This document shows, one piece after another, positions 2,290 to 14,920 of a stretch of 64,000 bases of DNA (the stretch's first letter is position 1; each line of letters opens with the position of its first letter). Source of the DNA: Colwellia sp. Arc7-635 (lineage in GTDB: Bacteria > Pseudomonadota > Gammaproteobacteria > Enterobacterales > Alteromonadaceae); the NCBI RefSeq assembly GCF_003971255.1, contig NZ_CP034660.1:2728001-2792000 (forward strand), given 5' to 3'. The translations under genes were made by a program, and so were the position numbers. A model generated the notes under the pieces. It was not told the DNA's origin. It did not search any database and saw only the letters and a program-made list of their open reading frames with translations.

Positions 2290-5200
2290 TTATTTCACTG
2301 GGTCACAGTGCAAACTTAATAACATCAACTCTCGTAAAGCCACCGAGAACTTAGCAAACTCATGCGTTTGACCAATTCTGAAATCAGCCAAAATATGTTG
2401 CCAGCGTTCAAGTGGTTGAGCACTATCAGTAAACCAAGTCTCTAGCATTTTATCAACATCAGTAGAGCCTTTATTAGCACGTAAAATAACCGAGGTTAAT
2501 GAACGTTGCTGCCAATCAAGCTCTTCTCGAAATGACGCTCTTGCCAGTGCTTGCCAATGGTTAGCAACTGGTTGAGAGGTAATTTGGTCTAAGAACCAAT
2601 GTAGCTCTAATCTTGCACCTAACTTGAAGTATAAATCAGTTGCTAATTCTGTTGAAACAGCTTCAGATTTTGAAATCTCTGCAAGATCCATTACTGAGAA
2701 CAATGTACTCAATAACGAGATTCTTAACGCCACTGACTCAGGAGCACCCGCTTTAATCAAATCAGTTTCTACACGCTTAATTTGTTTCGCTTCATCTTCA
2801 ACCATATAGTGAGTAATATTGTTTGAAAGTGCAGTGAATGTTGCGTGATAAAACTCTATTGATTGTGCAATGTTTAACGCTTTATTACGATGGCGCAAGA
2901 ACCAACGTGTCGCACGTCGTACGGTTCTACGTAATTGGAATAACATTTCTGTTTGAATAGAGGTAGAAATCTTATTATCCAAGTCACTAATTTGCTTCCA
3001 AATATCTGATAACTCAAATACCGCACTCGACATCGCATAACAGTTTGCGATTTCTGATGTGGTTGCACCCGTTTCTTCTCTCATGCGATTAACAAAGTTA
3101 AAGCCCATGTCATTACCAATATTATTCGCTAACTTAGTAGCAATAATTTCTGCACGTAATGGATGTTCTTGCATTTGTGCGCTGTAGTTATCTTGTAACT
3201 GCTTTGGAAACGCTTCAATGAGCAAACTTTGATGATACTCGTTGTCTGTAATTTCTGGACAAACAAGCTCTTCTTTTAATACCATTTTACTGTAGGCAAG
3301 TAACACAGAAAGCTCAGGTCTTGTTAAACCTTTACCTAAGGCTAAACGCTCAGCAATTTCTTCATCACTTGGGATAAATTCTAACGCTCTGTCTAGTTTA
3401 CCCGAACGTTCTAATTCAGTAATAAATTGTGATTGTTCTTTTAATTGGCTGCCACCGCGTAATTCAGTGATCGACAATGAATGCGTTTGGCGATAACAAT
3501 CTTCAATAACGATATGGCCTACTTCATCAGTCATATCGTAAAGAATTTTATTACGTTGCTTAATGGTCAAATCACCATTTTGTACTAAGCCATTTAATAA
3601 AATCTTAATGTTAACTTCGTTATCTGAACAGTCAACACCGCCAGCATTATCGACGGCATCAGTATTAATTCGACCACCTTTGGCGCCAAACTCTATACGG
3701 CCTAATTGTGTAAATCCTAAGTTACCACCTTCACCAACAATCTTCGCGTTTAGCTCTGCACCATTGATACGTAAACCATCATTCGCTCTATCACCTACTT
3801 CTAAGTGTGTTTCTTTAGAGCCTTTAACGTATGTACCAATACCGCCATTCCATAATAAATCAACTTGCATTTTTAATATGGCTTGCATCAAATCAATAGG
3901 TGACATGCTTTGTTTTTGTGTACCAAGCATCTTTTTAATTTGTGGCGTAAGTTTAATAGATTTGGTATGGCGGCTAAAGATAGCCCCGCCTTCAGAGATT
4001 AGCGACTTGTCGTAATCTTCCCAGCTACAACCCGGTAAATTAAATAGTCTTTCACGTTCTTTGTAAGAGCTTTCAGCATCTGGATTCGGATCAATGAAAA
4101 TATGCATATGGTTAAACGCAGCTTGTAAACGAATATGTTTTGATAACAACATACCATTACCAAATACATCGCCTGCCATGTCGCCAATAGCAATACACGT
4201 AAAGTCTGTTGTTTGACAGTCAATATCCATTTCGCGGAAATGACGTTTAACAGATTCCCAAGCACCTTTTGCAGTAATACCCATGGCTTTGTGGTCATAA
4301 CCAACACTACCACCAGAAGCAAAGGCGTCGCCCATCCAAAAATTGTATTCTTCAGAAATTGCATTCGCAACATCAGAGAAAGTTGCCGTACCTTTATCAG
4401 CAGCAACCACTAAGTAAGCATCGTCTTCATCTAAACGCACAACGTTCTCTGGTGGTACTATTTCACCGTCAACAATGTTGTCAGTAATATCTAATAAACC
4501 ACGAATAAAGGTGCGGTAACACTCTTTACCGGCTTCGAAAATTGCATTTCTGTCGCCATCAGGTAACTGTTTACAAACAAAACCACCTTTTGCACCAACA
4601 GGAACAATAACGGTATTTTTAACTTGTTGTGCTTTAACTAAGCCCAGGACTTCTGTTCTGAAATCTTCACGACGGTCAGACCAACGTAAACCACCACGAG
4701 CAACTTTACCGCCACGTAAATGTACACCTTCAACTTGAGGTGAATAAACAAAAATTTCAAAGGCCGGCACCGGCAATGGCACATCAGAGATTTGCGAAGG
4801 AACTATCTTAAATGAGATATAAGATTTTTCGCCAGTAACTGGGTGCGGTTGGAAGTAGTTAGTACGAATAGTCGCGTTAACCATTTCAACAAAACGTCGA
4901 ATAATACGGTCATCATCAAGGTTAGCAACATTGTCTAATGATGCTTCGATGTTAGCCAATATTTTTTCTATCGCTTTCTCACTAGTTTTTACTTTCGGTG
5001 AGAATCGTTTGATGAAGAGGTTAATCAATAACTCAGCAATGCTCGGGTAACGAGCAAAGGTATCTTCAATATAACTTTGACTGAAAGTACTACCGATTTG
5101 ACGTTCGTATTTAGAGAATGCACGTAAAATTGAAACTTCACGGCCACCGAGCTCAGCACCTAAAATTAAACGGTTGAAACCGTCATCTTCTAATTGCCCA

Positions 5201-7134
5201 GCCCAAACTTTAGCAAAAGCATCTTGGAATAAGCTTTGAACGATCTCTAGATTGAACTTGCCCGTACCTGTCAATAACATTGAAAAGTCTAAGATCCAGC
5301 AAACTTCACCACTTTCAGTTCTTACGGCATAAGGGCTTTCACCAATAACACGCAAACCAAAGTTTTCTAGCATCGGTAAAACATCTGATAAATGTAATGG
5401 CTCACCTGCGTGGAATAACTTTAATTTTACAAAGCGGCTATTACTTTCTTCTTCTTGTGGCTGATAAAACAACATCTCAAGTTTGTTGTCATCAGACAAA
5501 GCTTCAAGTTTCTCAATATCAACTATTGCAGTACCTGGTAATACTTCATCTTTATAAGATTGAGGAAAGCTAGCGTATTTACGGCTAAGTGCTTTACCTT
5601 TAGCTTCGCCTTTGTGCGAGTTTAACGCATCGGCTAAGTTATCATCCCAGCTGCGTGCTGCATGATTTAAATTCTTTTCAATTTCTTTCACATTAATATC
5701 CGCTTTTGTCGAATTAACTCTCACGATGTAGTGCGTACGTGCTTGTGCAGATTCAGAGAAGTAAGTTGTAAATTCAACTTCTTCAGTACTGCCTAATGCT
5801 TCTTGTAATAGTTTTTGTGTACTAATACGTAATGCTGTTGTGTAGCGTTCACGAGGTACATAAACCATACAAGAGTAAAAACGATTGAAAGAGTCACGAC
5901 GCATAAACAAGCCAGAGTAATCTCGCTCTTGCATCTGAAAAATACCCATGACATTTTTTAACAATTCAGCAGGTGAACTTTGTAAAATTTCATCACGTGG
6001 ATAAGTTTCTAGAATATTAATAAGTGCTTTATAAGCATGCGTGCCTTTAGCATAGCCAGAGTCATTACACACACCATTCACTTTAGATTTAATTAATGGT
6101 AAATCTAAAGCACTGTTTGTGTAGTAGGCTGAGCCAAATAAGCCAACAAAACGCTCTTCACCAACAACATTACCTTCAGCATCAAATCGTTTCACACCAA
6201 TATAGTCAAGATGTGCAGGGCGATGAACGCGAGATTTCGCATTAGTTTTTGTTAAAATCAATAAATTGCTACCTAAAGCAATTTTACGAGCAGATTCTGA
6301 CAAGTTCGAAATAAGACGTTCTTTAATGCCCTCATACTGATTCATCAGTCCGAGACTAGAGCTCGCATCAGCTGATAGCGCTAAGTCGCCTTCTAATACT
6401 TTAATATCGTATGAGCGATAGCCTAGTAGCGTGAAGTTATCTGCTAACATCCATTCTAGAAATTCAATACCGTCGCGATGTTCTTCGCTTGAACAAGGTA
6501 AAGACTTCGCTTGTTTAACTTCTTTAATCACACTACGCAAGCGTGCTTGCATAGGTTTCCAGTCATTAACAGTATTAGCGATATCATTAACAACTGAATG
6601 CAGCTCTTTTGCAACTTTTGCTAATACAGCAGCGTCATTCTGACGATCAATCTCAATGAAGAATACCGTTTCAACAGACGTAGATTTAAACGACTGATCA
6701 ACCGATGAGGAAAGTTGACTGATATTTTTGTTTTTATCACGAATGATTTTTATCGGCGAATTAAGCATTAAGTGCGGAGTTAAGTTTAATCGGCTTAACG
6801 CAATGCGCACAGAGTCCACCAAAAATGGCATATCTCGCACAATAATTTCGATAATAGTATGGCTAGATTTCCAACCATTTTTTGATACCTGTGGATTAAA
6901 AACTTTAATCACAGGTTTATTATCTTGATGATCGTTTAACGTGTTCCAAAGACTTAGCGTGGCACCGTACATGTCACTATCATTTCTATGATCTAAATCT
7001 AGGGTTGAAATATTGTTGTAAAGCAACTCAGCAAATTGATTAACTAGAGGAGCTGTTGCTGCTGGAACTTTTTGTTGTATTAACTGTGCTACGTTCGAAA
7101 GTATCACTGAAGGTAAACCGTCTACTAACGCCAT
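2290..7134 (-). CDS. gdhB: NAD-dependent glutamate dehydrogenase, large (about 180 kDa) class
   Basis: Interconverts glutamate and 2-oxoglutarate plus ammonia with NAD, normally in the catabolic direction. At 1614 residues it matches the large bacterial GDH family (Bac_GDH), in which a central dehydrogenase domain is flanked by long regulatory N- and C-terminal regions. The catalytic core is recognisable around residues 790-1080: GGLRWSDRREDFRTEVLGLVKAQ, VPVGAKGGFV with the substrate-binding Lys near residue 850, and the nucleotide-binding region with IAIGDMAGDVFGNGML and KIVGEGGNLG. The ATG start has AAGGAAAAAGG upstream. It is monocistronic, with its own strong terminator. The symbol gdhB follows usage for this class in Pseudomonas. 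Confidence 0.95.
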   Translation of the reverse strand: MALVDGLPSVILSNVAQLIQQKVPAATAPLVNQFAELLYNNISTLDLDHRNDSDMYGATLSLWNTLNDHQDNKPVIKVFNPQVSKNGWKSSHTIIEIIVRDMPFLVDSVRIALSRLNLTPHLMLNSPIKIIRDKNKNISQLSSSVDQSFKSTSVETVFFIEIDRQNDAAVLAKVAKELHSVVNDIANTVNDWKPMQARLRSVIKEVKQAKSLPCSSEEHRDGIEFLEWMLADNFTLLGYRSYDIKVLEGDLALSADASSSLGLMNQYEGIKERLISNLSESARKIALGSNLLILTKTNAKSRVHRPAHLDYIGVKRFDAEGNVVGEERFVGLFGSAYYTNSALDLPLIKSKVNGVCNDSGYAKGTHAYKALINILETYPRDEILQSSPAELLKNVMGIFQMQERDYSGLFMRRDSFNRFYSCMVYVPRERYTTALRISTQKLLQEALGSTEEVEFTTYFSESAQARTHYIVRVNSTKADINVKEIEKNLNHAARSWDDNLADALNSHKGEAKGKALSRKYASFPQSYKDEVLPGTAIVDIEKLEALSDDNKLEMLFYQPQEEESNSRFVKLKLFHAGEPLHLSDVLPMLENFGLRVIGESPYAVRTESGEVCWILDFSMLLTGTGKFNLEIVQSLFQDAFAKVWAGQLEDDGFNRLILGAELGGREVSILRAFSKYERQIGSTFSQSYIEDTFARYPSIAELLINLFIKRFSPKVKTSEKAIEKILANIEASLDNVANLDDDRIIRRFVEMVNATIRTNYFQPHPVTGEKSYISFKIVPSQISDVPLPVPAFEIFVYSPQVEGVHLRGGKVARGGLRWSDRREDFRTEVLGLVKAQQVKNTVIVPVGAKGGFVCKQLPDGDRNAIFEAGKECYRTFIRGLLDITDNIVDGEIVPPENVVRLDEDDAYLVVAADKGTATFSDVANAISEEYNFWMGDAFASGGSVGYDHKAMGITAKGAWESVKRHFREMDIDCQTTDFTCIAIGDMAGDVFGNGMLLSKHIRLQAAFNHMHIFIDPNPDAESSYKERERLFNLPGCSWEDYDKSLISEGGAIFSRHTKSIKLTPQIKKMLGTQKQSMSPIDLMQAILKMQVDLLWNGGIGTYVKGSKETHLEVGDRANDGLRINGAELNAKIVGEGGNLGFTQLGRIEFGAKGGRINTDAVDNAGGVDCSDNEVNIKILLNGLVQNGDLTIKQRNKILYDMTDEVGHIVIEDCYRQTHSLSITELRGGSQLKEQSQFITELERSGKLDRALEFIPSDEEIAERLALGKGLTRPELSVLLAYSKMVLKEELVCPEITDNEYHQSLLIEAFPKQLQDNYSAQMQEHPLRAEIIATKLANNIGNDMGFNFVNRMREETGATTSEIANCYAMSSAVFELSDIWKQISDLDNKISTSIQTEMLFQLRRTVRRATRWFLRHRNKALNIAQSIEFYHATFTALSNNITHYMVEDEAKQIKRVETDLIKAGAPESVALRISLLSTLFSVMDLAEISKSEAVSTELATDLYFKLGARLELHWFLDQITSQPVANHWQALARASFREELDWQQRSLTSVILRANKGSTDVDKMLETWFTDSAQPLERWQHILADFRIGQTHEFAKFSVALRELMLLSLHCDPVK

Positions 7135-7396: not shown

Positions 7397-9715
7397 TTAT
7401 TTTCGCTCTGGCCATAGAAATGCCGCTATAGCTGGTAATACCAGTATTGCAGCAATCATATTAACCAAAAACATAAAGGTTAATAATATGCCCATATCAA
7501 CTTGAAACTTCAAATCAGAGAAGAACCAGGTCGAAACACCAATCGCTAAAGTCACGCCGGTGATCAATACTGCGCTACCACGTTCTTTAAGTGCATCAAA
7601 ATAAGCACTTTGAACTGTCGCACCATTACGTAATTTTACGCTCATGGTGGATAAGATATAAATACCATAATCGACACCAATACCCACACCCAATGCAATT
7701 ACCGGTAAGGTTGATACGGTTAGACCAATATTAAGCTCTGTCATTAACCATTGCGCTAGTGTTGATACCACATAAAGCGGCACAACCACGGCGATAGTTG
7801 CTCTAAGACTTCTAAAGCTAAGTAAGCACAAAATAATCACGGCACCATAAACATATAGCATCATCGGAATTTGTGCTGCCTCTACCGCTTCATTGGTCGC
7901 TGCCATTACCCCAACAGGGCCTGAAGCAAGTTTAAACGATAAAGTATCCGTACCTAATTCACTAGCCACGAGTTTTGCGGCATCGACGACGCGATTAATA
8001 GTTTCGGCTTTATGATCTTCTAAAAACAAAATCACAGGCATAACGCTACAATCACTATTAAGTAAGCCACTTGATGATGGCACTCGAGCGATTGACTGTA
8101 CTAGCGTTTGTTGATTACGAGATAACACGCGCCACTTCGGATTACCTTCGTTGTACCCTGAGTTAACCAGTTTAGCGATTGATGACAAACTAACTGCCGA
8201 TTGCACGCCAGCAATGTTTTCCATTCGCCATTGAAATCTGTCGATAATGTCCATTTGATCATAGTAAGTACATGCATCTGCTGTTGTTTCAACAATCACA
8301 GACATATAATCGACACTGATAGCGTATTTATCAGTGATTAAAAAAGTATCTTGATTATATCGCGATGTTTCATGTAATGAAGGTGCACCTGCATGCAACT
8401 CCCCTATTTTCATATTTTGTGCGTTTTGATAACCGACAATGTAAAGTAGTGCAGTTATCGCTAAAATAATGATAGCAACTTTACGCGTCGCAACTGCTGA
8501 CATAACGTGCCATAAACGATCGGTCGCAGACGGTTTATTTTCTTCGTCATCACTTTGTGTTTTAGGGATATGTAGATATGAAACTAACAAAGGTAATAAC
8601 ACTAAGTTAGTTAAAATGATCATCGCAACACCCAATGATGCTGTTATCGCAAGTTCACGAATGATACCTATATCAATCGATAACAAGGTCATAAAGCCAA
8701 CGGTATCTGACAACAGCGCTATACCACCTGGCACTAATAAAACTCGAAAGCTTAACTGTGCCGCTTCTTTACTAGTTTTACCATTGTTGACCATTTTGGA
8801 GACCGAGTTAATCATCTGCACCCCATGACTAACGCCAATGGCAAAGACCAAGAACGGTACCAGTATCGACATAGGATCTAAACCGAAGCCGAGTTTCGAC
8901 AACATACCTAACTGCCATACAACCGCTATAAGCGAACAAGCAATAGGTAAAATAGTTAAAGCCAGAGAGCGACAAAACCAGAAAACCATTAAGGTTGTGA
9001 TAGCAATGGCAATAGCAAAGAAAGTAACAACCCCTTTCGCGCCTTGTGCTACATCACCGACCATTTTAGTAAAGCCAATAATGTGTACTGAAATATTGTC
9101 TTTTTCAAATTCACCACGGATTTCATCTTCTAATTGACCAGCCAAAACAATACTGTCGAGTTTTTCGCCTGTATTGGGATCAATTTCCATTAAAGAAGCT
9201 TTCACCATAGAACAGCTATAGTCATCAGCAACAATACTACCAACGATACCGGCTTTTTCTATATTACCCTTAACAATCGCTAAACCAGCGGCGTCAGGTT
9301 GAAAGTTCGCTGGAATAACGGGGCCACCTGCAAAACCATCTTCAACAATTTCAACAAAGCGTGTGCTTGGTGAAAATAATGATTTAACTTGAATGCGATC
9401 AACACCTGGAATGAAAAACAGTTTGTCGTGTACACCTTTTAAAGCAGTAAAAAATTCAGGGTTAAAAATATCTTCACTACTGTCACACACTGAAATTAAA
9501 ACATTATTGGCGCCGCCAAAGTTTGCCCTATGTTTAAGATAGGTTTTCATATAACTGTGATTTAAAGGAATGTGCTTAGTAAAAGCAGCATCAAGTTTAA
9601 TTTGGGATGCTTGAAACAGTAAAAATATACTGGTCAGGACAAAAAACACCAGCACAGATAAGCGATGACGAAAAAGTGCTGCTTCAACAACATTGATAGT
9701 ATAATTAATTTTCAT
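7397..9715 (-). CDS. RND-superfamily (MMPL-type) transporter
   Basis: The 772-residue product has the duplicated RND layout: TM1 (about 18-37), a large periplasmic loop (to about 225), a bundle of membrane helices (about 228-385), another helix (about 410-430), a second periplasmic loop, and a final helix bundle (about 620-768). The repeated pattern ALGVGIGVDYGIY in the C-terminal half and LVFAIGVSHGVQM in the N-terminal half is typical of the hydrophobe/lipid exporter branch rather than multidrug AcrB pumps. No periplasmic adaptor gene is nearby. It starts five bases after the YCF48-like gene and sits in a cluster with DUF1329 and DUF1302 genes, suggesting movement of a hydrophobic substrate across the envelope. 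The substrate is unknown. Confidence 0.88.
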   Translation of the reverse strand: MKINYTINVVEAALFRHRLSVLVFFVLTSIFLLFQASQIKLDAAFTKHIPLNHSYMKTYLKHRANFGGANNVLISVCDSSEDIFNPEFFTALKGVHDKLFFIPGVDRIQVKSLFSPSTRFVEIVEDGFAGGPVIPANFQPDAAGLAIVKGNIEKAGIVGSIVADDYSCSMVKASLMEIDPNTGEKLDSIVLAGQLEDEIRGEFEKDNISVHIIGFTKMVGDVAQGAKGVVTFFAIAIAITTLMVFWFCRSLALTILPIACSLIAVVWQLGMLSKLGFGLDPMSILVPFLVFAIGVSHGVQMINSVSKMVNNGKTSKEAAQLSFRVLLVPGGIALLSDTVGFMTLLSIDIGIIRELAITASLGVAMIILTNLVLLPLLVSYLHIPKTQSDDEENKPSATDRLWHVMSAVATRKVAIIILAITALLYIVGYQNAQNMKIGELHAGAPSLHETSRYNQDTFLITDKYAISVDYMSVIVETTADACTYYDQMDIIDRFQWRMENIAGVQSAVSLSSIAKLVNSGYNEGNPKWRVLSRNQQTLVQSIARVPSSSGLLNSDCSVMPVILFLEDHKAETINRVVDAAKLVASELGTDTLSFKLASGPVGVMAATNEAVEAAQIPMMLYVYGAVIILCLLSFRSLRATIAVVVPLYVVSTLAQWLMTELNIGLTVSTLPVIALGVGIGVDYGIYILSTMSVKLRNGATVQSAYFDALKERGSAVLITGVTLAIGVSTWFFSDLKFQVDMGILLTFMFLVNMIAAILVLPAIAAFLWPERK

Positions 9716-9720
9716 GAGAG

Positions 9721-10722
9721 TTACTTAGTTACGTTAATAGTTTTGATGCCAACATCAGAAACGGCAATAATTTTATTCTTAAACCAAACGCCAGCGATAA
9801 GTGCTTTACCATCTTTTTGCAGATGTTTCGTAAAAGTTTCGCCGTCATCATCACTTGCTAATAAGACGCCATTATTGCCCAAAATAAACACTCGTTGATC
9901 ATCACTCAATACAATCGAGCTTAATAGCGCAGTAACACCACTTTTGCTTTCCTGCCATGATGTACCATCGAGTAAACTGCGAAAAATATGACCACGTAAC
10001 CCGACAGCTAAAAGACTGCCATCTTTAGTACGATTAATATCATAGAACGAACCAGGATATATCTCGTCAAGTTTTTCCCAACTTAAGCCAAGATCATCAC
10101 TCTTTGCAATCAAACCAATTTCTCCGGCTAAGTACAGCGCTTCACCATCTGCAAGAATACGATTAAAATGAGGTAAGATACTGCTTTGCTCATCTAAATA
10201 AGCCACTTCATCTTCTAGTTTCAATTCGGCTAAATAGGCTTGGTCTTCTGGATATAAAAACTCATTATGATACTCAATAGCCCAATGTTTGCCGCCATCA
10301 CTGGTGCGATAAAACAAACCATATGCGCCAACAGCAACCCCATTGTTTGCATCAAAAAACAGTACATCCAATAAAGGCTTTTGTACTTTAGGCAACTGTT
10401 GCTGAACTTGCCATGAGAGGCCACCGTCGTTTGATGACAATATGGTTGCATCATGACCAACAGCCCAGCCGTTCATTTCATCGATAAAATAAACGGCTGT
10501 TAACGTTGTTTGTACTGGCACTTGTGCTTGCTGCCATTTAACACCATCTGTTGAAATAAGAATGTGGCCACGTTCGCCAACCACGATTAATTTGGATTGA
10601 TTAATTTCGGTAATATCAAGTAACAGCGATTGACTCGCCAGTGGAGCAATTCTCGCGTCTAGCGATTGCGCATTGATAATAGGGATAGTAAGAAAACTGA
10701 GTAAAATAACGAGAAGACGCAT
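9721..10722 (-). CDS. YCF48/BNR-repeat periplasmic protein
   Basis: A 333-residue protein with a clear signal peptide (residues 1-18, ending INAQS) and repeated Asp-box-like turns (STDGVKW, SNDGGLSWQ, TSDGGKHWA, SDDLGLSW, SDDDGETF), which predict a seven-bladed beta-propeller of the YCF48/HCF136 type. In plants and cyanobacteria that fold helps photosystem II assembly; in heterotrophs this family commonly sits beside MMPL-type RND genes, as here. A role as periplasmic partner of the adjoining transporter is inference. It is separated from the upstream DUF1329 gene by about 220 bases containing a hairpin. Confidence 0.85.
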   Translation of the reverse strand: MRLLVILLSFLTIPIINAQSLDARIAPLASQSLLLDITEINQSKLIVVGERGHILISTDGVKWQQAQVPVQTTLTAVYFIDEMNGWAVGHDATILSSNDGGLSWQVQQQLPKVQKPLLDVLFFDANNGVAVGAYGLFYRTSDGGKHWAIEYHNEFLYPEDQAYLAELKLEDEVAYLDEQSSILPHFNRILADGEALYLAGEIGLIAKSDDLGLSWEKLDEIYPGSFYDINRTKDGSLLAVGLRGHIFRSLLDGTSWQESKSGVTALLSSIVLSDDQRVFILGNNGVLLASDDDGETFTKHLQKDGKALIAGVWFKNKIIAVSDVGIKTINVTK

Positions 10723-10895
10723 AATTAACTATATTAGCTCCATTTATTCAAACTTGAGAGACATTAAGCCTCAACACAGATAACGATTTTAAGAAGAGTT
10801 GAGCTTTAGCTGCGCTCATCGCTACCGTAATAACCTCTGTATTAGCATAGCTAAAAACAGAGAAATGAACATAAAATAACCTTTTGAAACTTTAA

Positions 10896-10928
10896 AACAA
10901 AAACGGCTAGCATCTGCCAGCCGTTTTA
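10896..10928 (-). terminator. Hairpin after the DUF1329 gene, possible partial terminator
   Basis: A 9-bp stem AAAACGGCT (10900-10908) with AGCCGTTTT (10919-10927), extended inward past one mismatch, is followed on the minus strand by TTTTTGTTTT. Its position inside the cluster suggests that DUF1302-DUF1329 are transcribed at a higher level than YCF48-RND. Confidence 0.65.
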
Positions 10929-10941
10929 TCAAAGTATCAGT

Positions 10942-12330
10942 CTATCTTCGACCTTCACGACGTAACGCTGAAGATGTAAAATCAATATCTTTTAAATCGG
11001 CTGAAAAGTCATACATGTTAGCTTCATTATCTAAGCCCATCGCGATATAACGACGAGATTGTAAATCATGAAACACTTCTAGCGTTGACCACTGTGTAGG
11101 GACTTCATAGTAATTAATACCATGAGCAACACCGACACGATATAACTCATCACGGTTATCGTAAATATCCGTTACAGCCACTTGCCAGCTATCTTCATCG
11201 ATATAAAATACACGTTTTTTATAAGTATGACGCGTATCAGATTTCAAGTTAGCTTCGACAACCCAAACACGATGCTTTTCGTAACGTACCAGTTCAGGGT
11301 TAATATGACCTGGTTGTAAAATTTGGTCATATTTTAAATCATCACTATGCAGACGATAGTCATTATATGGAATCAATAACTCTTGTTTGCCTTTTAATGT
11401 CCAGTTGTAACGGTTAGGTGCGCCGTTAAACATATCAAAATCATCTGTTGTTCTTAGACCATCTGACGCTGTACCTGGTGCATCATAAGCAACATTAGGT
11501 GCACGGCGAACACGACGCTGACCAGTATTATAAGTCCAAGCTTGACGCGGCGTTTTTATTTGATCCATTGTTTCATGAACTAATAAAGCGGTACCGGCTA
11601 AACGTGCAGGTTCTGTCACTTTTTGCTTAAACTTAAATAGAATATTGGTTGCTTGTAGTTCTTCAGCTTTTACACCTTTAACACCGTAAGGAATAAGTAA
11701 CTGATCGTCAAAGCCCATATAGGTATAATCGCCTGACGATGTTGGTGCCGCTTGGCCGCCTTCACGAACAATTTTTTCACCACGATAGCGTAAAATGTGA
11801 TTCCAAATAGCTTCTAAACCATCTTTTGGTACTGGAAATGGAATACCAACAGCCGCTTGAACAATACCATTACCACCTTCAACTAACTCGGATCTCGTTG
11901 CATTGTCCAATGTTGCTTGATAAACATGCTCAGGATACGATGCAGAACGACGTGATTGGTAAACGCTCATTTTGTAAGTATCAGGGTAAGTTTCAAATAA
12001 TTTGATTTGACCTGGTGTTAACAACGCTTTGTATTGCTCTAAGTTCTGCTTGGTAATTGTATATAGCGCTTTATCTGTAGCAAATGGGTTAATATGATGG
12101 TCACCCACTTTATAACCTGCAGGTGCTGATGTGATACCACCAGTCCAAGCAGGAATAGAGCCATCAGCGTTAGCCGCACGAACGGCACCAAAAGGCGTGA
12201 GTTCTTTTTCTAATTTAGCCGCATCTTGCTGACTAATTTTCGCCATTGCACTCGCTGATGCTAAAGCAACGGTCACGGCCATCGAGACTAGCGTGACCTT
12301 TTTGATGGTATTTTTAAAAATATTTCTCAT
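10942..12330 (-). CDS. DUF1329 family periplasmic/outer-membrane-associated protein
   Basis: A 462-residue DUF1329 protein with a signal peptide (MRNIFKNTIKKVTLVSMAVT... ending ASAMA, followed by KISQQDAAKL). Family hallmarks seen are LTPFGAVRAANADGSIPAWTGG near the mature N-terminus, the YNTGQRRVRRAPNVAYDAPG stretch and the YKKRVFYIDEDSW segment. DUF1329 is thought to share a LolA/LolB-like lipid-binding fold, which would suit a shuttle for a hydrophobic ligand; that is family knowledge plus inference. I chose the ATG at 12330 because GAGG lies nine bases before it; an in-frame ATG at 12345 would add five residues. It follows the DUF1302 gene almost without a gap. Confidence 0.9.
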   Translation of the reverse strand: MRNIFKNTIKKVTLVSMAVTVALASASAMAKISQQDAAKLEKELTPFGAVRAANADGSIPAWTGGITSAPAGYKVGDHHINPFATDKALYTITKQNLEQYKALLTPGQIKLFETYPDTYKMSVYQSRRSASYPEHVYQATLDNATRSELVEGGNGIVQAAVGIPFPVPKDGLEAIWNHILRYRGEKIVREGGQAAPTSSGDYTYMGFDDQLLIPYGVKGVKAEELQATNILFKFKQKVTEPARLAGTALLVHETMDQIKTPRQAWTYNTGQRRVRRAPNVAYDAPGTASDGLRTTDDFDMFNGAPNRYNWTLKGKQELLIPYNDYRLHSDDLKYDQILQPGHINPELVRYEKHRVWVVEANLKSDTRHTYKKRVFYIDEDSWQVAVTDIYDNRDELYRVGVAHGINYYEVPTQWSTLEVFHDLQSRRYIAMGLDNEANMYDFSADLKDIDFTSSALRREGRR

Positions 12331-12350
12331 GAAAATAATCCTCATACTGC

Positions 12351-14396
12351 CTAAATTGAATATTTGATGTTAAAAGAAACGTAATCACGGTCTTCTAATT
12401 GGTTAGTCGTACCCACGCCATCAAAAAAGCTATTGTAGCTTAAGTCAGCTGACCAACGACTTTGGTAATCAAAACCTAAACCAAGTGACATTGATTTTCT
12501 ATCCTCAACAAACAAGAATAGTGGATCAGGTGTAATACCGTTAACATCATGTGAGAAAACAATCTTTGGTGATATGTTAATACCAGCAAAAACATTATTG
12601 TAATCTAATTTACCTACAAAACGATAACCCCATGCAAATGCACTTGGGAATGGATTTGTTTCAACACCATCTTGTAAAGCAATCTCTAAACCTTCTTTAC
12701 CTGCAATACCACCATTTCTGCCAGTACCTGGACCATTAAGACGTAATACATCTTGATCTGGCATATCACGAATATCAATACCGCCAACTTCAAGTAACGT
12801 CGTTAACTGACTTGCACCAAATGAAGGTCCCCATAAATGAGTTAAAGTGACTTGAGCTTGAATGGTATCAGATAAAATATAGCCATTAGCACGCTCACCA
12901 CCTTGGAAAACAGGCATTTGAGAAATACCATCGAGTTCCGTACGACCTAAGTCATTGGCTAGTTGCTGTGGCATAGCTGCAAACAATAATTCTACATCAT
13001 CGATTTGCAATGGTTCATCTTGACGGAATGTAACTTCACCGGCTACTGATGTGGTACCAATTGCAGTATTAAAGCTTAATGCATAAAGCTTAATATCTTC
13101 AATATAATCAAGTTCTACACGAGAAAATGCTTGTAAATCTGTGTAGTTATCTAGCGTAATTTCAGTGGTCGCTAACATAGCGACATCATGTCCTAAAGCT
13201 TCAGCACCAAAATCAGCTGTGATACCAGAAAATACCGGACGACGACTGTGGTAATTCATATGATACAAACTAACTTCAGTATCATTTAGCTCAGGTAAAA
13301 ACCATGAAAGACGCAAACCATATTGGCCGCCGTTTTCAGGGTCATTTTCAGCATCTTCTTGACGCAAGGTTAATTTTGTTGGGAAGCCGCCAACATAGGC
13401 ACCTGCAGCATCAGCCATTGCCACATTACCATTTAAAATTTGAGCTCTTAAGGCATTTAAATTAGTAACTAATGAATCTAGATCCATATCAGGATTACTG
13501 GCAAAGTTTAATTGAACATTATTAAACTGGCCGCCATCACCGGCAAAATCATTGGTTGAAAAGTAGCTACCTGGTGCAGGCAGTACTGTTTTCTCCCAGC
13601 TATATTGGTAAAACATTTCAATGTTGAAGTTTTCACTAACACCGAGTGATGCCCAAACAGCACCGAACGGGATAAAGGCTTCTTTTAATTCAGCACCTGG
13701 CGCTTTTAAGCGAGCGATATCTACTGGGTTTAATTCACTAATACCATGAGATATTAACGTACTTTCACCCCAGCTAATGACTTGCTGACCAACGCGAACA
13801 GAGAATGGCATTTCACCAATATCGAAGTCACCATAAACAAAAGCGTCTAATAAACGAATATCACGACACAGTTGATCACGCGCATCGTCATCACGACAAG
13901 GATCATTAACTTTTGCAGAAGATGGGTTAACCCATGCACGGCTTTCGTCCATCATTTCAAAGTCGTAAAAGTACATACCACGAGCAAAAAAACCTAAGTT
14001 TTCGTAACGGATATCAAGGTCGTGTGAACCTTTAATAAGCTTAGAGAATGTTTTGCCCGCATCATAGTTTAAGTTGCCATTATCGCTATTCGTAGAATAA
14101 CTACCGGCACCATTCCATACTGTTGCAGCATTAGGGTTAACATTTAATATTGGATGATACTGGCTAAAATCAAAGCCATTGTTAATATTATTAGATTTAC
14201 CAACATTGTCATTCCAATTACGATCTTCTACACGCCAGCTAGTACCTGCTGAAAAAGTAGAATCAAAGCTGATATCGAAATCACCTAACTGAAAGTTTTT
14301 TGCCTGCACATTAGCAGTAGCTAGTGTGATCATAGCGGCGGCAATACTTAGAGCCAGTGGCTTCTTGTAAAAACCGTTGCGAAGGTTTTGTTTCAT
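12351..14396 (-). CDS. DUF1302 family outer-membrane protein
   Basis: A 681-residue protein with a signal peptide (about residues 1-32, ending ANVQA) and an aromatic-rich, alternating-strand sequence through to the C-terminus (SFNIKYSI), as expected for an outer-membrane beta-barrel. Family features include DISFDSTFSAGTSWRVEDR at the mature N-terminus and VRVGQQVISWGESTLI near residue 210. DUF1302 and DUF1329 genes are regularly paired in proteobacteria, often near genes for hydrophobic substrate catabolism. The start has GGGGAGA upstream. This is the first gene of the four-gene module; no catabolic genes are adjacent. Confidence 0.9.
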   Translation of the reverse strand: MKQNLRNGFYKKPLALSIAAAMITLATANVQAKNFQLGDFDISFDSTFSAGTSWRVEDRNWNDNVGKSNNINNGFDFSQYHPILNVNPNAATVWNGAGSYSTNSDNGNLNYDAGKTFSKLIKGSHDLDIRYENLGFFARGMYFYDFEMMDESRAWVNPSSAKVNDPCRDDDARDQLCRDIRLLDAFVYGDFDIGEMPFSVRVGQQVISWGESTLISHGISELNPVDIARLKAPGAELKEAFIPFGAVWASLGVSENFNIEMFYQYSWEKTVLPAPGSYFSTNDFAGDGGQFNNVQLNFASNPDMDLDSLVTNLNALRAQILNGNVAMADAAGAYVGGFPTKLTLRQEDAENDPENGGQYGLRLSWFLPELNDTEVSLYHMNYHSRRPVFSGITADFGAEALGHDVAMLATTEITLDNYTDLQAFSRVELDYIEDIKLYALSFNTAIGTTSVAGEVTFRQDEPLQIDDVELLFAAMPQQLANDLGRTELDGISQMPVFQGGERANGYILSDTIQAQVTLTHLWGPSFGASQLTTLLEVGGIDIRDMPDQDVLRLNGPGTGRNGGIAGKEGLEIALQDGVETNPFPSAFAWGYRFVGKLDYNNVFAGINISPKIVFSHDVNGITPDPLFLFVEDRKSMSLGLGFDYQSRWSADLSYNSFFDGVGTTNQLEDRDYVSFNIKYSI

Positions 14397-14704
14397 GTCT
14401 TCTCTCCCCAGATGCGATTTTGCATTTTATTTTTATAAGCCCACGTACATGGTATGAAACAATAATTACATCATTTTGACTATGTGGCAAGTGATAAAAT
14501 CTTAGTTAAAGTCCTTTATATTAAAGACTTGAATAGCGTCATGTCATGAAAGCAAAAGGTTGTTTAAAACACCTGTTTTAAACAACCTTTCTTAACAAGC
14601 TATGAAGGGGAGATAGTGACTAGAAATAGCTGCCGTAATCCTGTCAACAATGAACGACCGTTTACTTTCGATGGTCAGACCACTGTTTAAAGCAAAGGCT
14701 CTAA
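14397..14704. other. Intergenic region holding the DUF1302 promoter side and a long hairpin
   Basis: About 308 bases between DUF2835 and DUF1302. The only clear structure is the hairpin at 14555-14590; no reading frame or RNA gene was recognised. Confidence 0.6.
14553..14592 (-). terminator. 16-bp hairpin, probable terminator of pepN-DUF2835
   Basis: A perfect 16-bp stem (14555-14570 with 14575-14590, arms beginning AAAGGTTGTTTAAAAC) has a 4-base loop ACCT. It lies about 115 bases past the DUF2835 stop. The T-tract is weak (CCTTTTGCTTT on the minus strand), so termination efficiency is uncertain. Confidence 0.55.
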
Positions 14705-14920
14705 TTACGATATTTTATCTAATGACAAAAATTTATTGTTCTGTGTTTGTAAACAAAAATGCCCTTTTATACCTGTTGCAGTTAAATGATTTCGTAAATG
14801 CATAGCCGGAAACTCAAGCCTTATTCCTTGAGCGGTCACTACCACTATCGATCGAATTTGCCCTTGATAATAGGGCAAATAGTCCTGGCTACTTATATTT
14901 AAGCTAAAATAATACGTCAT
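14705..14920 (-). CDS. DUF2835 family protein
   Basis: A 71-residue protein matching the small DUF2835 family as I know it: it opens with MTYYFSLNISSQDYLPYYQG and contains LEFPAMHLRNHLTATGI and a terminal NNKFLSLDKI. No function is established. It begins nine bases after the pepN stop and its ribosome binding site (AGGACCAGGG) overlaps the end of pepN, so the two are probably translationally coupled. Confidence 0.85.
   Translation of the reverse strand: MTYYFSLNISSQDYLPYYQGQIRSIVVVTAQGIRLEFPAMHLRNHLTATGIKGHFCLQTQNNKFLSLDKIS

What the first reader, a model, noticed from the sequence alone, without database searches (positions are those of the whole stretch)
7397..14396. Four-gene envelope module: DUF1302 + DUF1329 + YCF48 + MMPL-type RND
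A predicted outer-membrane barrel, a possible LolA/LolB-like lipid-binding protein, a periplasmic beta-propeller and an RND/MMPL inner-membrane pump are consecutive on one strand. Together they could span the whole envelope and move a hydrophobic molecule without a classical adaptor or TolC. The family associations are known, but the substrate and direction are not, and no catabolic genes lie beside the module here. This is the best candidate in the window for an incompletely described system.
Basis: partly seen in the sequence, partly recalled or inferred. Interest (0 to 1): 0.7.

Follow-up and report, generated by a model that had tools for sequence, protein, structure and literature searches.

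The report
Conserved four-part envelope hydrophobe transporter (AmeABCD-type)
A marine Colwellia-type bacterium carries a conserved four-gene set that probably moves greasy molecules between its inner and outer membranes; the set is already known as AmeABCD, but here it sits in an old chromosomal position away from hydrocarbon-degradation genes and has a conserved stop-like signal in its middle.

Summary
In detail: four minus-strand genes encode a DUF1302 barrel, a LolA-fold DUF1329 protein, a YCF48 propeller and an MMPL/HAE3-like RND pump. The set is not new: the same genes in the same order are AmeABCD of Castellaniella defragrans (2018), and related sets are in print for P. putida, a benzene degrader and betaproteobacteria.

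Added here: (1) 74 of 80 named loci keep the order, 52 of them between pepN and a glutamate dehydrogenase gene. (2) DUF1329 and DUF1302 co-occur in 12 of the 14 genomes with either, among 85. (3) A terminator-like hairpin lies between B and C in 63 of 77 loci (2.2 expected), against 0 of 78 for A-B and 4 of 76 for C-D. (4) A second copy in seven relatives lies with alkyl sulfatase and aldehyde dehydrogenase genes (7 of 7). (5) Pump motifs S-H-x-x-Q and D-Y-x-x-Y are invariant in 101 of 101.

Most likely role: proton-driven alkyl/acyl hydrophobe traffic by a LolA-type carrier. Substrate and direction are inferred. A fatty-acid regulator (FadR) link was tested and not supported.

The parts
12351..14396 (-). 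A: DUF1302 outer-membrane beta-barrel (predicted), 681 aa, signal-like N terminus (by eye)
   Evidence: PF06980 554 bits; AlphaFold model pLDDT 86.1, pTM 0.82, 19 strands of 8 or more residues; best Foldseek matches are OccK/OprD-type and other porins, prob 1.00, TMq about 0.3, TMt about 0.5
10942..12345 (-). B: DUF1329 protein with predicted LolA fold, 467 aa
   Evidence: PF07044 519 bits; model pLDDT 84.9, pTM 0.86; Z 19.1 to LolA3 of P. gingivalis 9tp6, Z 17.6 to DUF1329 protein 4z48, model residues 172-465
10900..10927 (-). Terminator-like hairpin between B and C
   Evidence: 12-bp stem, T-rich tail; -20 kcal/mol for the 56-nt stretch, z -5.87; terminator-like signal at this junction in 16 of 16 Colwellia-type genomes, window included, 0.6 expected, and in 63 of 77 named loci, 2.2 expected
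9721..10722 (-). C: YCF48-type beta-propeller, 333 aa, signal-like N terminus (by eye)
   Evidence: PF14870 94.5 bits; phmmer E 5.8e-26 to 2xbg YCF48-like protein
7397..9715 (-). D: MMPL/HAE3-like RND pump, 772 aa
   Evidence: PF03176 76 bits; TIGR00921 HAE3 141 bits over residues 16-764, below cut-off; S296-H297-x-x-Q300 and D682-Y683-x-x-Y686 invariant in 101 of 101 module pumps
14462..14490 (-). Promoter-like pair (TTGCCA, 17, AATTAT)
   Evidence: one of 23 scan hits in the region, 25.2 expected, so no evidence alone; the sequence around it is strongly conserved in the 16-genome alignment
14554..14590 (-). Hairpin upstream of A, probably the terminator of pepN-DUF2835
   Evidence: 66-nt stretch folds at -21.1 kcal/mol, z -4.78; outer arms differ between genomes while pairing is mostly kept, judged by eye
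14672..14682 (.). Palindrome TGGTCNGACCA, candidate operator of a GntR-family regulator
   Evidence: 16 of 16 Colwellia-type genomes; two sites in the genome, one in the reversed control; the other site is upstream of a pdhR-like GntR gene
14705..14920 (-). DUF2835 small protein (flank, not part of the module)
   Evidence: PF11197 85 bits
14930..17485 (-). pepN aminopeptidase N (conserved upstream flank)
   Evidence: PF01433, PF17432; upstream of the module in 61 of the 74 complete named loci
2290..7134 (-). NAD-glutamate dehydrogenase (conserved downstream flank)
   Evidence: PF05088 892 bits; downstream of the module in 55 of the 74 complete named loci

Best explanation
This is the chromosomal core copy of an AmeABCD-type system for moving a hydrophobic, most likely alkyl- or acyl-chain, compound across the periplasm. 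The RND pump (D) uses the proton gradient to take the compound from the inner membrane or its periplasmic face. The YCF48 propeller (C) docks on the pump. The LolA-fold protein (B) receives the compound and shuttles it to the DUF1302 barrel (A) in the outer membrane. A and B would be made in excess over C and D because of the hairpin between B and C. Shown: gene set, order, conservation, invariant pump residues, conserved hairpin. Predicted by models: LolA fold of B, barrel of A. Inferred: proton drive, docking of C, carrier shuttling, A/B excess, substrate class, outward direction.
For: Gene set and order. LolA fold of B; porin-type barrel A. Invariant polar and charged TM4 and TM10 residues in 101 of 101 pumps suggest a working proton relay. 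Terminator-like signal between B and C in 63 of 77 loci, 0 of 78 between A and B, 4 of 76 between C and D, 43 of 56 after D. In a benzene degrader the spectral counts are 106 for the porin-like protein, 158 DUF1329, 65 YCF48, 60 MMPL (PMC13101534), in line with A/B excess, though membrane pumps are under-detected in general. Substrate class: a second copy in seven relatives lies with an alkyl sulfatase, an AraC regulator and an aldehyde dehydrogenase in 7 of 7 loci and a GMC alcohol dehydrogenase in 6 of 7; P. putida homologues are reported essential for growth on Tween 20, and B-D, A-B and C-D contacts were predicted there (PMC10866462). Outward direction: the C. defragrans deletion mutant tolerates monoterpenes less and accumulates slightly more Nile Red (PMC6394551).
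Against: No substrate or direction was measured for this copy. The C. defragrans real-time Nile Red efflux curves were almost identical in mutant and wild type, and without limonene in the growth medium both strains accumulated similar amounts. Loss of growth on Tween 20 fits uptake as well. The alkyl-sulfate link belongs to a paralogue (window proteins share 32-51% with its A, B and D and 24-27% with its C) that this genome lacks. A FadR link, which would have supported fatty acids, failed: 8 consensus-like sites against 18 in the reversed control. A and B occur without C and D nearby in several loci.
Confidence: 0.48

Rival explanations
1. The system works inward: the barrel admits alkyl or acyl compounds, the LolA-like protein carries them to the pump, and the pump inserts them into the inner membrane, as NPC2 hands cholesterol to NPC1 (comparison recalled).
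For: Growth on a hydrophobic carbon source is lost or reduced in reported mutants: Tween 20 in P. putida, monoterpenes in C. defragrans, phenanthrene in Delftia as cited in PMC13101534. The second copy in relatives sits among catabolic genes. The one FadL-family gene found in this genome reads in two frames, so the usual fatty-acid porin may be absent.
Against: HpnN, HAE1 pumps and BstA are described as moving substrates outward. The C. defragrans mutant was less tolerant, and acetate relieved the defect, which points to toxicity rather than lack of food.
Confidence: 0.27
2. It is a general solvent or toxic-hydrocarbon efflux pump with no normal lipid substrate.
For: AmeABCD phenotype; homologues in aromatic regulons AphR, AphS and AphT, interpreted there as coping with toxic or solvent stress (PMC6449761).
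Against: Here the module keeps a core position between pepN and the glutamate dehydrogenase gene across many genera, away from hydrocarbon-degradation genes, which fits a standing cellular task better than an occasional pollutant.
Confidence: 0.13
3. Two independent half-systems: A-B serve the outer membrane or vesicles, C-D are a separate inner-membrane machine, and adjacency is mostly historical.
For: Terminator-like hairpin between B and C; A-B without C-D found nearby in L151, L160, L161, L062, L082 and plasmid loci L165, L168; A-B divergent from C-D in 7 loci; DUF1302 and DUF1329 proteins listed in nanopod vesicle material (PMC3110197).
Against: A-B-C-D order kept in 74 of 80 named loci, with 3 of the 6 exceptions at contig ends; linked fitness phenotypes of the split P. 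putida genes and predicted, weak B-D contact.
Confidence: 0.09

Closest known systems
AmeABCD, Castellaniella defragrans (PMC6394551; parts 1-3 of 5 read and one term search)
   Same: Same four families, same order, HAE3-affiliated pump, LolA-superfamily DUF1329, COG4447 (photosystem II assembly factor type) protein.
   Different: Ame lies in a monoterpene island and is induced by monoterpenes; the window copy lies between DUF2835/pepN and a glutamate dehydrogenase gene, in a lineage that keeps that position. That text has no word beginning 'terminator', so the B-C hairpin is not treated there under that name. Sequences of AmeABCD itself were not compared here.
P. putida PP_0765/PP_0766/PP_2018/PP_2019 (PMC10866462; section 12 read)
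   Same: DUF1302, DUF1329, a periplasmic protein and a multidrug-efflux-type transporter; linked phenotype; proposed novel transport system.
   Different: The locus numbers place the two pairs apart in P. putida; in the window all four genes are adjacent.
'Nanopod' gene cluster of Candidatus Anaerobenzenivorax ORM2a (PMC13101534; section 13 and passages)
   Same: Porin-like protein, DUF1329, YCF48 and MMPL genes, highly detected, proposed hydrophobe transport of unknown direction.
   Different: On a genomic island in a strict anaerobe, with two extra genes listed between DUF1329 and YCF48.
AphR/AphS/AphT regulon operons, betaproteobacteria (PMC6449761; passages)
   Same: COG4447, COG1033, PF07044 and DUF1302 genes together.
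   Different: Predicted to be controlled by aromatic-compound regulators.
BstA/BstB/BstC sterol transport, Methylococcus (PMC10942540; passages)
   Same: MMPL/RND inner-membrane protein, periplasmic binder and outer-membrane-associated protein proposed to move a lipid to the outer membrane.
   Different: No DUF1302, DUF1329 or YCF48 partner is named in the passages seen; the window pump scores 31.6 bits on the BstA model, cut-off 1400.
HpnN hopanoid RND transporter
   Same: Same HAE3 family according to PMC6394551; weak match TIGR03480, 55 bits.
   Different: Far below cut-off 752; HpnN is described as needing no association or co-transcription with partner proteins.

Membership tests
AmeABCD-type cassette | Four genes DUF1302, DUF1329, YCF48/COG4447, RND in this order on one strand | tested here: met
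AmeABCD-type cassette | Pump belongs to HAE3 branch with 12 TM segments and two periplasmic loops | tested here: inconclusive
   TIGR00921 HAE3 is the best NCBIfam model (141 bits, residues 16-764) but below its cut-off of 351.9; hydrophobic segments lie before residue 42, at 222-433 and after 610, leaving two long non-hydrophobic stretches, but 12 helices were not resolved one by one; no tree was built
AmeABCD-type cassette | DUF1329 protein of the LolA superfamily | tested here: met
   predicted fold: Z 19.1 to 9tp6 and 17.6 to 4z48; Foldseek E 1.2e-16 to 9tp6; LolA_like 41 bits
AmeABCD-type cassette | DUF1302 protein is an outer-membrane barrel | tested here: met
   by prediction only: model and porin matches
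AmeABCD-type cassette | Mutant sensitive to apolar hydrocarbons | not testable with these tools
   needs a deletion strain
AmeABCD-type cassette | Next to monoterpene catabolism (a trait of the type system, not required of the family) | tested here: not met
   neighbours are pepN, DUF2835 and an NAD-glutamate dehydrogenase gene
HAE1 tripartite pumps (AcrAB-TolC type) | Membrane-fusion adaptor and TolC-like channel genes in the cassette | tested here: not met
   no such Pfam match among the four proteins
FadR regulon | FadR protein present and FadR operator upstream | tested here: inconclusive
   FadR-type protein present, 377 bits; palindrome present, but it also lies upstream of a pdhR-like gene and the full consensus is not enriched
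BstABC sterol transporters | BstA equivalog match | tested here: not met
   31.6 bits against cut-off 1400

The most novel reading that the evidence does not exclude
The module is a general lipid-traffic route of the gammaproteobacterial envelope, built of an outer half (barrel plus LolA-like carrier) made in excess and an inner half (propeller plus proton-driven RND pump), separated by a conserved internal terminator. In Alteromonadales it would be a standing route for free fatty acids or alkyl lipids, with specialised paralogues recruited to alkyl sulfates, Tween esters, terpenes and aromatics elsewhere.
Probability: 0.28. Interest if true: 0.68.

Novelty: new member of a known kind. Interest (0 to 1): 0.42.

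Why it matters
The functional papers seen here come mostly from hydrocarbon or detergent users, and the set is read there as detoxification or substrate transport. Finding it as an old core locus away from such genes, with a paralogue tied to alkyl-sulfate breakdown, makes the substrate question testable: alkyl and acyl lipids are the first candidates. The hairpin between the outer and inner halves gives a simple test of shuttle against fixed channel.

Tried and rejected
FadR regulon: the conserved TGGTCNGACCA palindrome first looked like FadR. The genome has two such sites (reversed control: one); the second lies upstream of a GntR gene beside ORFs that I read as aceE/aceF-like, hence a pdhR-like gene (names by eye and recall, the GntR gene is also a weak 36.5-bit FadR-model match). 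The full consensus (recalled) gave 8 sites against 18 in the reversed control. In four other genomes forward/reverse counts were 2/0, 5/5, 4/3, 2/2 against controls 3/6, 10/12, 3/0, 10/6. Of three mismatch-free sites there, two lie just upstream of the module's DUF1302 gene; the other sites show no clear fatty-acid genes (by eye). Not claimed.

PsrA-like reading of the GTTTAAAAC palindrome: unique in the genome and its outer arms vary while mostly pairing (by eye), so read as a terminator.

A wholly new system: rejected on literature. Searches behind statements on print: in the open-licence PMC library only.

Solved relatives by sequence for DUF1302 and DUF1329: profile searches gave nothing under E 0.1; fold comparison was needed. 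DUF1302 matches are general porin-like.

Rows left out or incomplete: the 6 named loci not in A-B-C-D order are L097, L145, L148 (contig ends) and L151, L160, L161 (A-B only). In one search the incomplete primary loci are L058, L062, L082; L050 and L051 hold other DUF1329 copies. Of the class sample I fetched 20 regions from 11 genomes: G081 (fragmented) and G095 (DUF1302 only) were not fetched; G051 gave only distant DUF1329; the nine G068 regions are mostly rearranged, one with B-C-D and a divergent A, one with all four genes in another order. Of 42 plasmid records with a DUF1329 match I read 8: five have A-B-C-D, one B-A-C-D, two A-B only. For L049 only half of the alkyl sulfatase was covered by the listed match.


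Full report
WHAT IS THERE. Four consecutive minus-strand ORFs occupy 7397-14396. In order of transcription they are A, DUF1302 (PF06980, 554 bits), B, DUF1329 (PF07044, 519 bits, with a LolA_like match of 41 bits), C, YCF48-type (PF14870, 94.5 bits), and D, MMPL (PF03176, 76 bits). Among NCBIfam models D fits the HAE3 transporter model best, 141 bits over residues 16-764, below the curated 352. Stop-to-start gaps are 5, 219 and 5 bp. The window lies in a 4.74-Mb single-contig genome; the closest named relatives are Colwellia, and I call its genus 'Colwellia-type'. DUF1329 has one match there. DUF1302 has one strong match; a weak one (19.6 bits, below cut-off) lies in another RND cluster.

FOLDS. 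The DUF1329 model (pLDDT 84.9, pTM 0.86) matches LolA3 of Porphyromonas gingivalis (Z 19.1), a solved DUF1329 protein (4z48, Z 17.6) and a Vibrio lipoprotein-sorting protein (3bk5, Z 17.1), all over model residues 172-465; LolA and LolB chains follow at about Z 5.6 to 10.3, part of it a level the tool calls common (Foldseek agrees). The DUF1302 model (pLDDT 86.1, pTM 0.82) has 19 strands of 8 or more residues, and its best matches are OccK/OprD-type and other porins (TMq about 0.3, TMt about 0.5). C matches solved YCF48 structures (E 5.8e-26). D matches MmpL4/MmpL5 and AcrB-type chains weakly. Lipid binding was not tested.

CONSERVATION. Of 40 genomes (own plus relatives) 34 have a DUF1329 match of any strength. 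I fetched 38 DUF1329-bearing regions from them plus one other region. Of the 29 primary-copy regions, 26 have A-B-C-D in order, 22 of these with both pepN and an NAD-glutamate dehydrogenase gene as flanks. In 80 named loci (best hits of a capped scan), 74 have A-B-C-D in order on one strand; of these 61 have pepN upstream, 55 the dehydrogenase gene downstream, 52 both. Loci with both flanks include Colwellia, Thalassotalea, Litorilituus, Pseudoalteromonas, Rheinheimera, Alteromonas, Shewanella and Ferrimonas. Eight of ten Pseudomonadaceae loci keep pepN, none with the dehydrogenase in the stretch. Four Verrucomicrobia MAGs (three of them Opitutaceae) and one Deltaproteobacteria MAG also have the complete set (binning errors not excluded).

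UNBIASED CO-OCCURRENCE. In 85 genomes drawn over the class (own included), DUF1329 is in 13, DUF1302 in 13, both in 12 at E <= 1e-30 (hypergeometric 1.3e-12, or 7.7e-12 without the own genome, which ignores kinship). Nine other genomes with one DUF1329 match and an adjacent DUF1302 were fetched: 9 of 9 have A-B-C-D in order. One genome (G068) has nine DUF1329 matches in mostly rearranged settings, and two genomes have only one of the two families.

INTERNAL TERMINATOR. The same scan was applied to each junction of the named loci. Terminator-like signals: A-B 0 of 78 (0.9 expected from shuffles), B-C 63 of 77 (2.2), C-D 4 of 76 (0.95), after D 43 of 56 (1.2), pepN to A 26 of 61 (5.25). For short gaps the scan ran to 80 bases past the stop. 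An earlier scan limited to the B-C gap gave 16 of 16 Colwellia-type genomes, window included (0.6 expected), and 50 of 71 named loci (1.8). Stem letters differ between genera while pairing is kept, for example CGGCTGGC/GCTAGCCG in Colwellia, CGGTTGGC/GCCAACCG in Alteromonas and AAGGCCGCTAC/GTAGCGGCCTT in Pseudomonas. The loci are related, so the counts are not independent. The median B-C gap is 75 bp (gene starts are mechanical), which leaves little room for a second promoter, although the Colwellia-type and Pseudomonas gaps are longer. I infer read-through at reduced level, hence more A/B than C/D. Spectral counts in a benzene degrader agree (porin-like 106, DUF1329 158, YCF48 65, MMPL 60; PMC13101534), with the caveat that pumps are poorly detected. 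Transcription was not measured.

PUMP SIGNATURE. In 101 module pumps aligned (window, named loci, second copies, class sample, plasmids), S296, H297 and Q300 in TM4 and D682, Y683 and Y686 in TM10 are invariant (101 of 101); the other MMPL pump examined from this genome (L045) has Asp at the position of H297. I infer a working proton relay with histidine in place of the TM4 acid. Numbering is that of the window protein; helix names are by analogy.

A PARALOGUE THAT HINTS AT SUBSTRATE. Seven relatives (six of the same genus, one of the same family) carry a second A-B pair divergent from C-D. All 7 loci contain an alkyl sulfatase (on L048: Alkyl_sulf_dimr 200 bits, Alkyl_sulf_C 138 bits), an AraC regulator and an aldehyde dehydrogenase; 6 of 7 also contain a GMC alcohol dehydrogenase. 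That reads as alkyl sulfate to alcohol to aldehyde to acid. Family assignments were made on L048 and carried to the others by similarity; in L049 the listed sulfatase match covers half. The window genome lacks this copy, so the hint is indirect.

REGULATION. A palindrome TGGTCNGACCA lies at 14672-14682 and in all 16 Colwellia-type genomes aligned. Without mismatch it is in 12 of 77 named loci: 11 of the 12 Colwellia, Litorilituus and Thalassotalea-type loci L084-L095 (the twelfth has one mismatch) and one Rheinheimera. In this genome the only other site lies upstream of a GntR gene next to pyruvate-dehydrogenase-like genes. A FadR-type protein exists, but FadR consensus sites are not enriched. 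A GntR-family operator is likely; which regulator is open.

PRIOR ART. AmeABCD of C. defragrans has the same genes and order. Its authors state that composition and organisation of such cassettes are conserved in the AmeD lineage, and report poor growth of the deletion mutant on limonene and other non-functionalised monoterpenes, relief by acetate, and slightly higher Nile Red accumulation, but no difference in real-time efflux (PMC6394551). P. putida PP_0765/0766 with PP_2018/2019 are reported essential on Tween 20 and were co-folded as a transport system (PMC10866462). Betaproteobacterial aromatic regulons hold the four families together (PMC6449761). A benzene-degrader cluster was reported in 2026 (PMC13101534). 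DUF1302 and DUF1329 proteins are listed in Delftia nanopod material (PMC3110197). A DUF1302 protein of P. aeruginosa, PA3923, binds laminin (PMC6890786, passages).

VERDICT. A real, well-conserved module of a known kind. The points I did not find in the papers seen are its core position away from hydrocarbon genes, the internal terminator-like hairpin, the invariant pump signature and the alkyl-sulfate paralogue; only the open-licence library was searched. Most likely it moves alkyl or acyl hydrophobes by a LolA-type carrier driven by the RND pump, probably outward (confidence 0.48); inward transport is the main rival (0.27).

Noticed in passing
L045 4375-10968 (own genome C1:4352000-4370000): A second, smaller RND set in this genome: AraC regulator, MMPL pump (871 aa), strong LolA_like protein (PF17131, 182 bits) and a 514-aa protein with a weak DUF1302 match (19.6 bits, none at E 0.001); no YCF48 or DUF1329 relative found in the stretch.
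   Followed up: partly
L189 8509-9824, minus strand (own genome, just beyond the window): The one FadL-family gene found in this genome reads in two different frames; true break or sequencing error is not known.
   Followed up: no
window 14554-14590 and 14672-14682: Between DUF2835 and the module: a hairpin whose outer arms vary between genomes while mostly pairing, and a palindrome shared only with a pdhR-like promoter in this genome.
   Followed up: partly
window 14685-14704, and upstream regions of several named loci: After the DUF2835 stop a motif like TTAGAGTnnnnnCTTCAAAC recurs across Alteromonadales genera; purpose unknown (seen by eye, not counted).
   Followed up: no
L164 (plasmid of P. 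aeruginosa PA83): A conjugative plasmid carries pepN, an IS30 element and the complete four-gene module, resembling a moved piece of chromosome.
   Followed up: no
L146, L147, L150, L155 (Opitutaceae and other Verrucomicrobia MAGs): Complete module in MAGs outside Proteobacteria, with DUF1329 55-59% identical to the window's, suggesting transfer between phyla or a binning error.
   Followed up: no
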